This document shows positions 2,977 to 21,076 of a DNA stretch of 23,612 nt, one piece after another; the first letter of the stretch is position 1, and each line of letters begins with the position of its first letter. Location of the stretch: IMG/VR virus record IMGVR_UViG_3300006925_000153, positions 1 to 23,612 of that record; one strand, written 5' to 3'. The notes under the pieces were generated by a model that searched no databases, was not told where the DNA came from, and was given only the letters and a program-made list of their open reading frames with translations. Source of the DNA: a virus. Position numbers and translations under genes: made by a program.

Positions 2977-5900
2977 TTATGCTATTGTTGTTTCTACCCA
3001 AAATTGGTGAAAGTTATTATTATTAGTTCCGCTTATTTGGTACATATAGTTAGTATTCGTTCCTGAGTAAACCAAAGATGCTGAACCTCTACTTAAGCTA
3101 CCTTGTGTCGCATGCTCATGTTTATATACATTATAAGCTGTAACAAATCTTGCATTAGAGCTTGGTGGATTCCATTGTACATAATAAGCATTGTTAAGAT
3201 TAACCACACTCATTGATGTAGGTTCAGCAGAAGAAACTGAGTAAGAAACACTGTCCGATGCAGCACTTGATAGAATGCCATATTTCATTGCATACACGCG
3301 ATATGCTTGTGTGCCTGTCTCATCAAAGGCATTGTCAATAATGCTCATCGAAGCAGCAAAATCATCAGGTGGGACAATCGATATCAGACCATAATCACTA
3401 CCATCAATTGAACTATAAACAAGGTAAGCATCGATGTTTGATGTAGTAGATTCTGCAAACGTAACCTCTACTGTTTCTCCAACAATCGCTACTGATGCGC
3501 TTGCTGGCGCGTTAGGCGCAGATATTGAAGCTTGGCCACCAATATCACTAAGAACTTCTGCTCCAGTTCTAAACTTAACATCGCCGCTATCTGACACAAG
3601 AAACTTATCAACATCCGAACCTGCGTTTGCAAGAGCGCTGAAATTCACTGCCGCTCCAGCTTCAAAATCAGTACTAACAGTTAAGTCTCCTGAAACTGTA
3701 GCGTTGTTAGTAACTATTATATCGTTATTAAAATATGCCGCACTTGTTGTTCTTAATGTTCCATTAACGTCTAGTTTATATGAAGGTGTTGTGTCTCCTA
3801 TACCAACGTTACCAGAAGCATTGATGCGAATTCTTTCAGCACTCGCTGAATATATTGCCGTCTGAGAACCACCTTCTGAACCGAATAGCAGAACCCCTGT
3901 ACCCGGTTCAGCTAACATTACAGCCCCGCCCACTCTAAACTTACCCGTTACCTTCCCCTCTCCAGCGACATCTAGTTTATAAGATGGACTTGTTGTTCCT
4001 ATACCAACATTGCCAGAGGAGTTAATATACAAGCGGGATGTGCCAGCAGCTCCACCTGTAGTAACACTTACATTATTACCACCAGCAAATACTGTAGATG
4101 CTGATGTATAATCTATAGCTCCTACTTGAATTACATTACCACTAGTTAACCCAGCTAACTTATAATTAGTACCTAAAGTACTCTCCGCTGCATAGAATTG
4201 ATTATTACTTATTAAAACGTCACCACTCGCAACATGGAGTTTTGAATCTGGACTCGTTATTCCTATACCAACTTTGCCTTCAATGATCGCTCCGCCTGTT
4301 GGGGGAGCGATCCCACTTGAGGCACTATATGTCAATCCTAATCCCAACCCACCTGTATCAGAAATTTTGGCTACAGGAGTCCCATTTTTATAGAAAGTTG
4401 TTCCGTAAAAACCATTACTATCCACTCCAATTCCTCTACCATTCGACCCCTCTGAGGTGTGTCCGTAACGTATATACTCATCCCACCCACCTTGAATGGT
4501 TAATTTTCTTGTCGGACTATTTGTTCCTATACCAAAGTTACCATTATCCAAAATGATAGCTTTATCCGATCCAGCGTTGTTTTTGAATTTTATAGAACCA
4601 CTGGAAGTCGCAGCAGTTATCTGATTAACAACAGCGGCATTAGCTAGCATAGAGCCAGTGACTGATACGCCGCTACTTGTTGTTTGTATCTTAACACTAT
4701 CTTGATACCTTAAATTAACACCTCCAGCATTTCCTTGGAACCAAACTTGACCATTCGTATCTCTAATAAATACATTTTGAGAACCATCAATATATAAACT
4801 TCCAGTACCAGTATCCTTAATAAAGCTATTAGAACCATCATGGTAGATTTTAAGATCAGGACTTGCATAGTCACCAAATCTTAACTCAACATTATCGTCA
4901 AAGTGAAGGTTTTTAGTGGCAAGCATTTGAGTATGACTACCATCTAATCTAAGGTAATCTGTTACACCACCAGAACCATTGTCTGATTTAAAAACAATAT
5001 CATTATCATTGGCATCGTTCTGTATGATCAGTTCACCTGTAAGATTTTGAATATATGAATTACCAGAAACATGATAAATACCTAAGTCATTACCCTCTCC
5101 AGCATAAAGAGCTTTACCGTCAGCCATTCGCAAATGTTGGCTAGCTACAGAGTAACCTAACCCACCATCTATTCTAAAGTACTCTTCTAGAGTCCCTGAT
5201 GAATTTTCAGCCTGAAGTTTAATATCACCCCCGTGTACAGTATTACGTATATCTAAAACACCAGTTTTATTTACTATATAACTATCACCAGCCGAAGAGT
5301 GGTATAATTCTAAATCTTGAGCATTTCCAAAACGAACTTTAACATCATCGTTCAGATTTATATTACCCGTTATCGTACCACCTGCTAGTGGTAAGTACGA
5401 TGATAACGCGCTTGAGGAAACATAAGTACTGCTATCTACACTACCGTCGGCTTTAAGGAATTGCGATGAAGTTCCTCCTGATTTGATAAGTGATGTGGCA
5501 GTAACTGAACCTGCAAAGGTTGCGTTACCAGTAGAACTAATAGTTAAAGCTGTTGCATCAGGAGAAATAAATTGGAACCCGTTACCTGTCGCTCCTGTAG
5601 TCGCTTTCCATACACCAGCGAAGTTTCTGAACTGACCACTAGTGCCACTATAAACATTTGCAGAAGAAACTATACCACTATTATTAAACTGCGCTCTAAG
5701 TGTACCTCCAGTTGTGATACCTAAATGATCAGCTTCTATTCTATAAATTCCAGTATTAGAATCATTATTAAATGTAATTGCCGGAGCTGTCGCGACTCCG
5801 TCTTGAACATATAATCTGGATGTTCCTCCATTTGTGCCGAGCCTAACATCACCACCATCATTCTGTAAATATAATATACTAGCACTTCCGTTACTACGGG

Positions 5901-6249
5901 ATATAATCTCGTTATTATCAATAATGAGGTTCTGCCCACTTGATGTACCTACTTGAAAAGCGTGATCAGTACTAGTAAGACTTGCATCACTTCCATTTGT
6001 AAGTCTAAGTTTATCAAATGTAGGAGTTGAAGTCGTAAGAACGTTTTGGTTTAAATGAAAACCGTCAACCGTGTCTGCGTTATCTGCGTTATTTGCGTTA
6101 ATCTTATGTACAGCTGGTGATAATTCATCGTCGCGATAAAATAAATAACCATCTTTGTAGTTTAAGGCAATTTCACCGAGTGAGAGAGTTCCTGTAGTAG
6201 GAACTCTTCCTGCAACTCCGGATTTTTTAAGAGTAATAGTATTGGCCAT
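2977..6249 (-). CDS. Long tail-fibre protein with repeat shaft and C-terminal FN3-like domains (1090 aa)
   Basis: The N-terminus (MANTITLKK ... LSLGEIALN ... GYLFYRD, residues 1-42) is a common fibre-attachment head that also starts the 684-aa gene. The shaft has three repeats with an E/DLxIYHxSxxSxI core (near residues 300, 380 and 451; one reads LKIYHDGSNSFIKDTGTGSL), then four GNxGIGxxxPxxKLxV repeats (near residues 570, 657, 746 and 812). Both repeat types are typical of marine T4-like fibres. From about residue 909 the style changes: two consecutive fibronectin-III-like units (about 909-1005 and 1008-1090) have proline-rich openings, a core xVxVTF or YVQWNPP, and YxVY strands. No intramolecular chaperone motif is seen. 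The gene has its own promoter and follows a terminator, so its dose may be set separately from the upstream fibre. The likely role is host attachment, with the FN3 units binding surface sugar or pairing with the downstream adhesin. Confidence 0.8.
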   Translation of the reverse strand: MANTITLKKSGVAGRVPTTGTLSLGEIALNYKDGYLFYRDDELSPAVHKINANNADNADTVDGFHLNQNVLTTSTPTFDKLRLTNGSDASLTSTDHAFQVGTSSGQNLIIDNNEIISRSNGSASILYLQNDGGDVRLGTNGGTSRLYVQDGVATAPAITFNNDSNTGIYRIEADHLGITTGGTLRAQFNNSGIVSSANVYSGTSGQFRNFAGVWKATTGATGNGFQFISPDATALTISSTGNATFAGSVTATSLIKSGGTSSQFLKADGSVDSSTYVSSSALSSYLPLAGGTITGNINLNDDVKVRFGNAQDLELYHSSAGDSYIVNKTGVLDIRNTVHGGDIKLQAENSSGTLEEYFRIDGGLGYSVASQHLRMADGKALYAGEGNDLGIYHVSGNSYIQNLTGELIIQNDANDNDIVFKSDNGSGGVTDYLRLDGSHTQMLATKNLHFDDNVELRFGDYASPDLKIYHDGSNSFIKDTGTGSLYIDGSQNVFIRDTNGQVWFQGNAGGVNLRYQDSVKIQTTSSGVSVTGSMLANAAVVNQITAATSSGSIKFKNNAGSDKAIILDNGNFGIGTNSPTRKLTIQGGWDEYIRYGHTSEGSNGRGIGVDSNGFYGTTFYKNGTPVAKISDTGGLGLGLTYSASSGIAPPTGGAIIEGKVGIGITSPDSKLHVASGDVLISNNQFYAAESTLGTNYKLAGLTSGNVIQVGAIDYTSASTVFAGGNNVSVTTGGAAGTSRLYINSSGNVGIGTTSPSYKLDVAGEGKVTGKFRVGGAVMLAEPGTGVLLFGSEGGSQTAIYSASAERIRINASGNVGIGDTTPSYKLDVNGTLRTTSAAYFNNDIIVTNNATVSGDLTVSTDFEAGAAVNFSALANAGSDVDKFLVSDSGDVKFRTGAEVLSDIGGQASISAPNAPASASVAIVGETVEVTFAESTTSNIDAYLVYSSIDGSDYGLISIVPPDDFAASMSIIDNAFDETGTQAYRVYAMKYGILSSAASDSVSYSVSSAEPTSMSVVNLNNAYYVQWNPPSSNARFVTAYNVYKHEHATQGSLSRGSASLVYSGTNTNYMYQISGTNNNNFHQFWVETTIA
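3771..4542 (-). repeat. Four GIGTTSP-type repeats in the fibre shaft
   Basis: Copies lie at about 3771-3814, 3972-4013, 4235-4279 and 4500-4542. Each encodes a variant of GNVGIGTTSPSYKLDV. At DNA level the plus strand shares 'cctataccaa' in every copy. The spacing is irregular (about 200-265 bp), so these are dispersed module repeats within one protein rather than a tandem array. Confidence 0.85.
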
Positions 6250-6285
6250 GATTATAGAATCTGTAGAAAGGAACTATAGAGCCCC

Positions 6286-6330
6286 TTTAAAAAATAAGCA
6301 TTGTAAGGTAATCCCCTACAATGCTTATTT
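6286..6330 (-). terminator. Intrinsic terminator after the 684-aa fibre gene
   Basis: A perfect 14-bp inverted repeat (6292-6305 against 6317-6330, core AAGCATTGTA) surrounds an 11-base loop. On the minus strand the 3' arm runs into a six-T tract (6294-6289), the usual form of a rho-independent terminator for minus-strand transcripts. The stem is AT-rich and so may be only partly efficient. It lies 25 bases after the TAA of the 684-aa gene. Confidence 0.75.
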
Positions 6331-6333
6331 ATA
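6326..6333 (-). promoter_or_regulatory. T4-type late promoter TATAAATA, overlapping the terminator stem
   Basis: The minus strand reads TATAAATA exactly, in a non-coding gap of 105 bases. It precedes the ATG of the 1090-aa fibre by 76 bases. Five of its bases (6326-6330) belong to the first arm of the terminator hairpin, so a transcript started here would begin inside or just after that arm. It should escape the full hairpin while upstream transcripts form it. Confidence 0.65.
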
Positions 6334-6354: not shown

Positions 6355-8409
6355 TTAAAATGTGCCGCCATCAACAACTGTGTCATAGAGACCTCCTGAA
6401 ATATGTAGGCCAATATCTTTTCCACCTCCTACACCAGTAAGTGCCATACGCTTGTCTGCATCGGCTGCGCCATTGACATATTTGAATTCAACCACTCCTT
6501 GCGATACATTGTTGCCAGTAGTCTTACCAAGCAATATGCCAGCAGCGTCGATACCCGCATGAGTTGTTTGGTCTTCTGCGAGACGCATGTGCTTATCAGC
6601 AATGGAAATCTGAGTTGAATTGATTGTCGTTGTTGTTCCATCAACTTGAAGATCACCACGAATAACAACTGTTCCACTAGCGGCTGGGCTATCATTACTG
6701 TGAGGAGAATCGTTCGGCGCTGGATCAATGTAGAATGTTGAAGGACCAATTAAATTTCCAGCAGTGACTATAAGATCTCCCGCTGTAATATCAACATCGC
6801 CAGTAACAGTAAGATCATCAAGAGTACCAACGCTTGTAATAGAATCTTGGTGCTGAGTAACGTTAGAAGCTTTAATCCTGCCATCAAGAAACGTTCCAGA
6901 CGTGATCTTAGATGTAGGAAGGTTTCCAACATTGGCTGAAGGTAGAGCGCCCGTAACATCATCTGTAAGATCAATCTTATGTCTTGTAATTTGTTGACCA
7001 CTAATAGTGATATAATCAGGAGTACCTGTTAGTGTAACATTGGTTGAGTTGTCTGTACCTGCGGCATCAACACCAAGATTAGTTCTTGCACCTGCTGCGC
7101 TTGATGCTCCCGTACCACCGTGTGCCACGGCAATATCAGTAGCTGCCCACGTACCTGTTGTAATAGTACCAACACCTGTGATAGATGTGTCCACATCGGT
7201 TTTAAATCCACTGATAGGGTATGTATCAATCGCCCTTGCTTTTGGATTTTCATAGCCACCAGAGCCTCCGGGATGAATAATAAACGCGTCAAGGGTTGAA
7301 GTACCGGTGTGCGTTGCCATATTATCAGCATCGAGTCTAAACTCAGTACCATTCAATACTAAACCGCCGTTTGACTCTGCTGTATATGTTGTATTGGTAA
7401 AAGAACTTGCAACCGTTAATTTTGTTGCACTTGTTCTTGTAACAGTAACATTAGATCCACCAGTAATTTCTACAAAATCATTCGTAGAATCTGAGCCAGC
7501 TAAGTTGATTTTTGTTGTACTAGCAGGGACTGATAAATCATAGGTTGTATTAGTGTCGCTTAAATCGTTATTAAATATACTAAGAGGAATTTCACTCGCA
7601 GCTTTTCTCTTTTGTACACTTGAACCGGTTGCAGGGACGTCTAATACAACAAACTCGTCACTGCCAGTGATGGAGGCTGTCATATCAGCCAATTCAGTAA
7701 GATCGACACTTACCGTTTGAGTCGCTCCGCTATCTGTGCTTGCTACATCTATCAAAGCACCAGGTGAGACGCTAGTGACTGCTCCAAGTTCTGCCCTGAG
7801 TTCGGCCGAGGAAATTCCTTCTAAACCATTCGCAGTGAACTTAGCGTAATCATTATCTTCAACACTAGCATGATCAATTTTTACTGCATTAGTGTCATTA
7901 ATACCAAATGTAAGAGTATCTTGTTTGCCATTGAGCTGACCTTGAATACCTGATGTAACACCAGTGACATAGTTTAATTCGGTAGTTGAGGCAGTTGCTC
8001 CGTCAAGTTTGTTAAGCTCAACCGCGGTAGCATCAACAGCTGCAAGTTTTGTAAAGTCTGCTTTAACTAATCCACTGACATCGTCAAGAAGATTAAGCTC
8101 AGCTGCTGAAGCACTTACAGTTGTTCCATCCAACTTAAATGTGCCTGTAACATCGAGTGTACCACTTGCAGTCGTAGTTCCACTAAACGTTTTATTGCCG
8201 GTAACAGTTTGAACAGTATCTGTCGTAACATAATTCAGGCCGTCTCCTGCAATGGCTAAAACGGTATCACCTCCAGAGGATCCAGCTCCAATATAAAGTG
8301 TCCGGTCGTTATCGTTGAACGCTAATTCACCTAGCGATAGGGCAGCTGGCGCGCCGGAATTGCCTCCTGACGTATATGTCCTTCTTTTAATTCTAATTGT
8401 GTTTGCCAT
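6355..8409 (-). CDS. Tail-fibre protein with ELN-type repeats (684 aa)
   Basis: The N-terminus MANTIRIKRR ... LSLGELAFND matches the head of the 1090-aa fibre, suggesting the same docking site or trimerisation mode. Residues of about 100-162 carry the 'AELNLLDxV / ELNKLDGATAST / ELNYVTGVTS' repeat seen in many marine T4-like fibres, ending in QLNGKQ. The middle is Thr/Ser/Gly-rich beta sequence. The C-terminal module (about residue 584 on) has VDGTTTTINSTQ followed by IADKHMRLAE, the same module that opens the leftmost fibre gene. The protein ends in VVDGGTF. The first ATG after the upstream stop is used, 23 bases after a TATAAATA element. The likely role is a baseplate-attached side or short tail fibre; T4 gp12 or gp34-37 cannot be assigned. 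Confidence 0.8.
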   Translation of the reverse strand: MANTIRIKRRTYTSGGNSGAPAALSLGELAFNDNDRTLYIGAGSSGGDTVLAIAGDGLNYVTTDTVQTVTGNKTFSGTTTASGTLDVTGTFKLDGTTVSASAAELNLLDDVSGLVKADFTKLAAVDATAVELNKLDGATASTTELNYVTGVTSGIQGQLNGKQDTLTFGINDTNAVKIDHASVEDNDYAKFTANGLEGISSAELRAELGAVTSVSPGALIDVASTDSGATQTVSVDLTELADMTASITGSDEFVVLDVPATGSSVQKRKAASEIPLSIFNNDLSDTNTTYDLSVPASTTKINLAGSDSTNDFVEITGGSNVTVTRTSATKLTVASSFTNTTYTAESNGGLVLNGTEFRLDADNMATHTGTSTLDAFIIHPGGSGGYENPKARAIDTYPISGFKTDVDTSITGVGTITTGTWAATDIAVAHGGTGASSAAGARTNLGVDAAGTDNSTNVTLTGTPDYITISGQQITRHKIDLTDDVTGALPSANVGNLPTSKITSGTFLDGRIKASNVTQHQDSITSVGTLDDLTVTGDVDITAGDLIVTAGNLIGPSTFYIDPAPNDSPHSNDSPAASGTVVIRGDLQVDGTTTTINSTQISIADKHMRLAEDQTTHAGIDAAGILLGKTTGNNVSQGVVEFKYVNGAADADKRMALTGVGGGKDIGLHISGGLYDTVVDGGTF

Positions 8410-8432: not shown

Positions 8433-8440
8433 TATTTATA
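8433..8440 (-). promoter_or_regulatory. T4-type late promoter TATAAATA
   Basis: An exact TATAAATA on the minus strand lies within the 34-base gap between the 127-aa gene and the 684-aa fibre, 23 bases before the fibre's ATG. It would give a short leader of roughly 15-18 bases if initiation follows T4 spacing. Confidence 0.7.
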
Positions 8441-10147: not shown

Positions 10148-10336
10148 CTATTTATCTAATATTAAAGTGTTAAGTATTTGTTTTAGCTCGCTAATTTCAG
10201 TCTTTAGAGATTCTATTTCTTCTTCTTGAAACTGTTGTTTTTGACTATTTTTCTTTGCCGACATTCTTGCATTATAAGCCGATTCATCTTTATTAATAAG
10301 TACTCCTCGACTTTTTCTTATAAATTTGCTTTTCAT
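10148..10336 (-). CDS. Small coiled-coil protein (62 aa)
   Basis: The frame starts MKSKFIRKSRGVLINKD with a basic N-terminus. Residues 36-60 form a clear heptad helix with hydrophobic a/d positions (IESLKTEISELKQILNTLI). Its ATG overlaps the TAA of the 1898-aa gene by one base (TAATG), the classic arrangement for translational coupling, and it ends 4 bases before the 317-aa gene. It is too small for an enzyme. A trimeric coiled-coil clip or an assembly helper for its large neighbour is plausible from position. Confidence 0.75.
   Translation of the reverse strand: MKSKFIRKSRGVLINKDESAYNARMSAKKNSQKQQFQEEEIESLKTEISELKQILNTLILDK
10149..10156 (-). promoter_or_regulatory. Late-promoter-like GATAAATA next to the start codon
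   Basis: The minus strand reads GATAAATAGTAAC directly before ATG. The octamer overlaps the last two codons and stop of the 62-aa gene and ends only 5 bases from the 317-aa start. If it is a promoter, the message would be leaderless or nearly so. Because the bases also encode Asp-Lys-stop, chance is a real alternative. Confidence 0.4.
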
Positions 10337-16038: not shown

Positions 16039-16046
16039 TATTTATT
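16039..16046 (-). promoter_or_regulatory. Late-promoter-like AATAAATA next to the start codon
   Basis: The minus strand reads AATAAATAAATTTT then ATG. The octamer overlaps the gp8 stop codon and ends 6 bases before the ATG of the 1898-aa gene. It differs from TATAAATA in the first base only. The extreme AT content makes a chance match easier here than at the other sites. Confidence 0.35.
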
Positions 16047-21068: not shown

Positions 21069-21076
21069 TATTTATA
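21069..21076 (-). promoter_or_regulatory. T4-type late promoter TATAAATA next to the gp25 start
   Basis: The minus strand reads TATAAATAGTAAT then ATG of gp25. The octamer overlaps the stop of the 141-aa gene. With T4-like initiation spacing the transcript would start at or within a base or two of the ATG, giving a leaderless gp25 message. Confidence 0.55.

What the first reader, a model, noticed from the sequence alone, without database searches (positions are those of the whole stretch)
6286..6333. Terminator hairpin and late promoter share bases
The TATAAATA at 6326-6333 overlaps the upstream arm of a 14-bp terminator stem. RNA arriving from the 684-aa gene contains both arms and can terminate, while RNA started at this promoter lacks the first part of the arm and cannot form the full hairpin. 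This compact switch would insulate the two fibre genes and prevent self-termination of the new transcript.
Basis: partly seen in the sequence, partly recalled or inferred. Interest (0 to 1): 0.6.

Follow-up and report, generated by a model that had tools for sequence, protein, structure and literature searches.

The report
Late promoter inside a conserved hairpin
Between two tail-fibre genes of a T4-like marine phage, the late-promoter word sits in the first arm of an RNA hairpin, so passing transcripts make the whole hairpin while transcripts started there keep only a short hairpin at their tip; eight related contigs keep the arrangement, which looks like a compact stop/start signal, a variant of tricks known from phage T4.

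Summary
On the minus strand TATAAATA (6333-6326) runs into the 5' arm of a hairpin at 6330-6292 (14 Watson-Crick plus 3 G-containing pairs, loop 5). The stem is longer than any in 25 shuffled windows, and the RNA z-score is -5.4. The arrangement is not a one-off: eight other IMG/VR contigs carry it at the same fibre-fibre junction. TATAAATA is invariant there, and the stem shows compensatory changes (5 of 12 pairs, 100% pairing). It was found at no other junction of these relatives.

The U-tract is good in the window but mediocre in relatives, so strong termination is not conserved. Best reading: one stem used twice, as a weak-to-moderate terminator or 3' end for read-through RNA and as a 5'-terminal cap on late RNA. 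Both roles are inferred; no RNA data exist.

Known precedents: T4 gene e and I-TevI (late start inside an inhibitory stem) and PeSL promoter/terminator cassettes. Side finding: NATAAATA-N5-ATG units that predict leaderless late mRNAs.

The parts
6326..6333 (-). Late-promoter word TATAAATA, probably at -13 to -6
   Evidence: invariant in 8 orthologous junctions
6320..6320 (-). Predicted late transcription start (+1; could be 6319)
   Evidence: T4 geometry from PMC1524935; inferred; the NATAAATA-N5-ATG spacing peak in relatives fits the same geometry
6314..6330 (-). 5' arm of the full hairpin
   Evidence: 12 inner pairs covary
6309..6313 (-). Loop GAUUA (variable in relatives)
6292..6308 (-). 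3' arm of the full hairpin
6289..6297 (-). U-tract UUAUUUUUU of the terminator reading (partly paired with the promoter's A-rich bases)
6302..6320 (-). Residual 5'-terminal hairpin UGUAGGG-GAUUA-CCUUACA of the late RNA
   Evidence: fold from +1: -9.9 kcal/mol; equivalents of -10.0 to -12.9 in all six relatives folded
6267..6288 (-). Small leader hairpin with loop UCUAUA (AAAGGGGC-UCUAUA-GUUCCUUU); stem changes on both sides in relatives
6250..6261 (-). GAU-UCUAUA-AUC directly before the AUG, conserved
6355..8409 (-). Upstream 684-aa fibre-like gene, ends ..DGGTF*
   Evidence: orthologous C-terminus in relatives
2977..6249 (-). Downstream 1090-aa tail-fibre gene, begins MANTITLKKSGV
8433..8440 (-). 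Late promoter of the upstream fibre gene, no hairpin

Best explanation
This is a conserved fibre-gene boundary element in which one stem serves two transcripts. The late promoter TATAAATA overlaps the outer, A-rich pairs of the hairpin. RNA running in from the upstream fibre gene contains both arms, folds the full 17-bp hairpin and, helped by the U-tract, terminates there at least part of the time, leaving a hairpin-capped 3' end. RNA started at the promoter begins about 6 nt after TATAAATA, inside the arm. It therefore cannot form the terminator, but it keeps the loop-proximal 7-8 bp as a hairpin with no unpaired 5' nucleotides, which probably protects the 5' end (RppH and RNase E need single-stranded 5' ends). 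Shown by sequence: the overlap, its conservation, the covariation and the two alternative folds. Inferred: promoter activity, exact start, termination and protection. Estimates: promoter used about 0.85; partial termination in this phage about 0.55; 5' protection about 0.45.
For: The hairpin exceeds chance. Eight other contigs (7 distinct sequences plus one almost identical to the window) carry it between a gene ending DGG(T/S)F* and one starting M[AS]NT[IL]xLKKSGV. TATAAATA is invariant while the 30 columns upstream are only 37-53% identical to the window. Of 12 inner pairs, 5 change on both sides and all 96 cells pair (0 of 500 shuffles for paired cells, double changes and covariation score; slid controls 40-56% paired). 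All 11 non-Watson-Crick cells are G-U in the sense RNA, so only 85 of 96 pair in the antisense, which points to the transcript. Where the 3' partner of the promoter bases changes (window, L184), TATAAATA does not, so it is kept for itself. Terminator score: read-through RNA +17.5 (window) and +2 to +8 in five relatives; late RNA -35 to -55 in all. 5'-terminal hairpin of -9.9 to -12.9 kcal/mol in all seven folded. Stabilisation by 5' structure: PMC3997798.
Against: No RNA data. Scores in relatives are well below ordinary terminators of T4 and cyanophages (21-62), and L184 is negative. The late start is extrapolated from T4. The terminator formula was applied from memory with ViennaRNA energies, so only comparisons inside that table count. 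More distant fibre leaders with NATAAATA often have some hairpin in the leader but no U-tract, and about half are no better than shuffles.
Confidence: 0.5

Rival explanations
1. The hairpin is only a 5'-leader element of the late fibre mRNA (stability or translation). It does not terminate read-through RNA to a useful degree; the good U-tract of the window is accidental.
For: The residual hairpin is conserved in all members folded while the U-tract is not. The leader holds further conserved small hairpins up to the AUG. At this junction the leader is 76-98 nt, against 5-32 nt at the other TATAAATA genes of the family.
Against: The outer pairs upstream of the predicted start are kept with compensatory changes (columns 46, 47). 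These bases are absent from late RNA, so selection seems to see the longer RNA too.
Confidence: 0.25
2. It works like T4 gene e and I-TevI: read-through RNA folds the long hairpin to block translation of the downstream gene, and late RNA escapes.
For: The T4 precedent uses the same geometry, with late promoters encoding the 5' strand of the inhibitory structure (PMC3014915). My scan recovers T4 gene e as a hit.
Against: In T4 the Shine-Dalgarno or AUG is inside the stem; here the stem ends about 43 nt before the AUG.
Confidence: 0.08
3. The long hairpin is an RNase processing site that cuts fibre-fibre read-through RNA.
For: A perfect 17-bp stem that covaries.
Against: Short for RNase III; does not explain the promoter overlap or the polarity of the U-tract.
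Confidence: 0.07
4. Coincidence: an ordinary terminator whose A-tract happens to read TATAAATA.
For: AT-rich terminator flanks resemble the motif. S-CAM7 shows AATAAATA next to a normal terminator.
Against: TATAAATA is invariant in 8 contigs and is the only late-promoter word in each leader.
Confidence: 0.05
5. A mobile promoter/stem-loop cassette that serves recombination between fibre modules (PeSL-like).
For: It lies at a boundary of variable fibre genes; PeSLs are known in T4-like phages (cited in PMC4503421).
Against: A covariance model finds only the orthologous junction, once per contig, in 1.46 Mb; a pattern scan of all IMG/VR found hairpin-forming copies only at this junction.
Confidence: 0.05

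Closest known systems
T4 gene e, soc, 49 and I-TevI leader hairpins (PMC3014915)
   Same: The late promoter lies in the DNA encoding the 5' strand of an RNA stem; upstream RNA folds it, late RNA starts inside and escapes.
   Different: There the stem hides the ribosome-binding site; here it ends about 43 nt before the AUG, is followed by a U-tract, and leaves a residual 5'-terminal hairpin.
PeSL promoter/stem-loop cassettes of T4-like phages (Arbiol 2010; Comeau 2014; cited in PMC4503421, primary papers not held)
   Same: A composite of promoter and terminator-like stem-loop in a T4-like phage.
   Different: PeSLs use early sigma-70-like promoters and occur in many copies at variable loci; this has a late promoter and one fixed junction. 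Fine PeSL geometry is from memory.
Intrinsic terminators of T4 and cyanophages
   Same: Stem-loop followed by a U-rich tract at the end of a gene.
   Different: Longer, AU-rich stem and weaker U-tract, with the promoter word in the A-tract.
5'-terminal stabilising stem-loops (ompA, papA; PMC3997798)
   Same: The mRNA begins with a hairpin and almost no unpaired 5' bases.
   Different: Here the hairpin is the inner part of a larger one that read-through RNA can form.

Membership tests
T4-type late promoter | TATAAATA/NATAAATA on the coding strand just upstream of late genes | tested here: met
   4 of 5 in the window and nearly all in relatives lie on the coding strand 5-98 nt before an ORF
T4-type late promoter | Initiation 6 nt after the word with gp55/gp33/gp45 | not testable with these tools
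   The window is a 23.6-kb record without these genes; no RNA data
Intrinsic terminator | Stable stem-loop in the transcript | tested here: met
Intrinsic terminator | U-rich tract directly after the stem | tested here: inconclusive
   Good in the window (UUAUUUUUU), weak in relatives
Intrinsic terminator | RNA 3' ends at the U-tract | not testable with these tools
   needs 3'-end mapping
T4 gene e-type late-start switch | Late promoter in the 5' arm; late RNA cannot form the full stem | tested here: met
T4 gene e-type late-start switch | Stem sequesters Shine-Dalgarno or AUG | tested here: not met
   Stem ends at 6292, AUG at 6249
PeSL cassette | Early sigma-70-like promoter | tested here: not met
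   The only promoter word at the element is the late TATAAATA; no sigma-70-like site was listed there
PeSL cassette | Many copies at different loci | tested here: not met
Rfam RNA families | Score above a family's gathering threshold | tested here: not met
   Best 29.7 bits against a threshold of 55

The most novel reading that the evidence does not exclude
A single stem gives the upstream RNA its 3' end and the downstream late RNA its 5' cap hairpin, and because the stop point lies about 30 nt downstream of the promoter start, polymerase released there could slide back and restart at the same promoter (terminate-and-reinitiate, as shown in vitro for E. coli polymerase in PMC6978380).
Probability: 0.2. 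Interest if true: 0.65.

Novelty: new variant of a known kind. Interest (0 to 1): 0.45.

Why it matters
It would show how a compact phage genome separates neighbouring late genes without spending bases: the promoter decides which part of one stem is transcribed, and so whether the RNA stops or begins there. It gives a conserved, covarying, testable example at tail-fibre genes of uncultured marine T4-like phages, for which earlier workers could not predict late promoters satisfactorily (PMC7029224).

Tried and rejected
Recurrence at other junctions: 205 distinct TATAAATA sites in about 1.3 Mb of relatives gave promoter-abutting hairpins only at this junction; 96 NATAAATA sites in 340 kb of eight isolates gave only T4 gene e and one S-CAM7 terminator, plus an S-CAM7 hairpin with an internal mismatch at L262:38244; neither S-CAM7 site was found in records other than S-CAM7. 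Isolate DNA homologous to the cassette: none. Rfam: nothing. Whether hairpins with loop UCUAUA are enriched genome-wide: not enriched (3.4% against 2.1-3.2% for control loops), so they are specific to this leader. Sequestration of the ribosome-binding site: geometry does not fit. The built-in terminator scan missed the hairpin, probably because its stem runs into the U-tract. The primary PeSL papers were not held.

Full report
What the window is. The window is a complete 23,612-base IMG/VR record with the late structural cluster of a T4-like marine myovirus, its main genes on the minus strand: tail-lysozyme-like, gp25, gp6 and other baseplate-wedge proteins, a 1898-aa protein at the position of VrlC in HTVC008M, then fibre-like genes. 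In a sampled ranking of isolates its gp6 matched Pelagibacter phage HTVC008M best (37%), so it is probably a pelagimyophage or a close relative (inference).

Observation. Minus strand: TATAAATAAGCATTGTAGGGGATTACCTTACAATGCTTATTTTTTAAAGGGG. TATAAATA occupies 6333-6326; the hairpin occupies 6330-6292 with 17 pairs, 14 of them contiguous Watson-Crick. Folded in context it has z = -5.4 with 0 of 200 shuffles as stable. The longest Watson-Crick stem in 25 shuffled windows was 11 bp. The GC-closed core is 6324-6298, followed by UUAUUUUUU. The promoter overlaps the outer A-rich pairs of the stem and abuts the core.

Is TATAAATA a promoter? In the window, 4 of 5 copies lie on the coding strand at 5, 20, 23 and 76 nt from a start codon, and relatives show the same pattern. 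The site at this junction is the only late-promoter word in the leader of each member.

Conservation. Searches with the flanking protein, the fibre amino terminus and a DNA pattern brought in eight other contigs with the same junction: a gene ending DGG(T/S)F* and a gene beginning M[AS]NT[IL]xLKKSGV. One of them is almost identical to the window. Across 8 distinct sequences TATAAATA is invariant; the 30 columns upstream share 37-53% with the window, the arms 50-75%, the loop 25-38%. Of 12 inner pairs, 5 change on both sides, all 96 cells pair, and sliding the partners drops pairing to 40-56%. All 11 wobble cells are G-U in the sense strand; in the antisense only 85 of 96 cells would pair. The changes are few and the sequences are related, so the shuffle counts are not probabilities. 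Where the 3' partner of the promoter bases has changed (window, L184), TATAAATA has not, so the word is kept for its own sake. A covariance model finds only this junction, once per contig, in 1.46 Mb.

Mechanism. T4 late promoters lie at -13 to -6 (PMC1524935), which puts +1 at T6320 (or G6319). The peak of NATAAATA-N5-ATG spacing in relatives (below) fits that geometry. From there the RNA can form only the inner 7-8 bp, and does so with no free 5' nucleotides in all seven members folded. A d'Aubenton-Carafa-type score (formula from memory, ViennaRNA energies, useful only within this table) gives read-through RNA +17.5 in the window, +2 to +8 in five relatives and -10 in L184; reference hairpins of T4 and cyanophages score 21-62; late RNA scores -35 to -55. 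The conserved features are the promoter, the long stem, and the 5'-terminal residue of the stem. Outer pairs that late RNA never contains still show compensatory changes, which argues that the full stem in read-through RNA matters too. I therefore favour double use of one stem: 3' end or terminator for upstream RNA and 5' cap for late RNA. Stabilisation by paired 5' ends is established in bacteria (PMC3997798); its action here is inference. The stop point lies downstream of the promoter, so the element cannot keep passing polymerase off the promoter.

Known relatives of the idea. T4 genes e, soc, 49 and I-TevI have leader stems that inhibit translation in longer RNAs; for e and I-TevI the late promoter sits at the 5' strand of the stem (PMC3014915). 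My scan recovered gene e. There the stem hides the ribosome-binding site; here it does not. PeSL cassettes combine early promoters and stem-loops (cited in PMC4503421). I could not read the primary papers. In isolates I found one comparable site with a true terminator (S-CAM7, AATAAATA next to CCTCCC-TATAT-GGGAGG-T7, L262:16406-16433), found only in S-CAM7 records.

Side finding. In these contigs and HTVC008M, NATAAATA is often followed by exactly 5 (or 6) nt and then the ATG of a gene: 84 distinct sites in several gene families. T4 and six cyanophage segments show no spacing of 5-7 (their range is 13-39). In whole genomes, gap-5 matches number 9 in HTVC008M against 1 for the reversed-pattern control, and 0-2 in the seven other phages. 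With T4 geometry this puts +1 on the A of ATG, predicting leaderless late mRNAs, including for gp25 in this window. It also shows how unusual the 76-98 nt leader of the hairpin junction is.

Verdict. Real, conserved and partly understood; a new variant of the known late-start-inside-a-stem design, with the terminator part only moderately supported.

Noticed in passing
window 21069-21076 (-, gp25 start 21063), 16039-16046 (-), 10149-10156 (-); HTVC008M and L024-L097: Composite NATAAATA-N5/6-ATG at many late genes (84 distinct sites), absent at that spacing in T4 and the six cyanophage segments sampled; predicts leaderless late mRNAs in pelagimyophage-like viruses. May deserve its own study.
   Followed up: partly
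window 6250-6288 (-) and orthologous leaders L182-L187: Two or three small hairpins with conserved loop UCUAUA and variable, mostly complementary stems, the last ending right before the AUG (GAU-UCUAUA-AUC-AUG); could be an RNA or protein operator for the fibre gene.
   Followed up: partly
window 2977-6249 (-) versus L003:8161-11925: The downstream fibre protein is 100% identical for about 575 aa to a co-occurring phage, then diverges completely, then regains identity in a late segment: modular fibre exchange.
   Followed up: partly
L188-L225, leader of the same fibre amino-terminal family in more distant phages: GATAAATA-type promoter 54-61 nt before the AUG, a variable hairpin, then GAGTATATACTC just before the AUG; similar leader plan without a U-tract.
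   Followed up: partly
L262:16406-16433 and L262:38244 (Synechococcus phage S-CAM7): Late-promoter word abutting a true terminator (AATAAATA-GAG-CCTCCC..GGGAGG-T7), and TATAAATA in a hairpin arm upstream of a baseplate gene; both found only in S-CAM7 records.
   Followed up: partly
T4 L261:15349-15371: TATAAATAGATAATATATTTATA: two late promoters head to head in one palindrome between genes 4 and 53.
   Followed up: no
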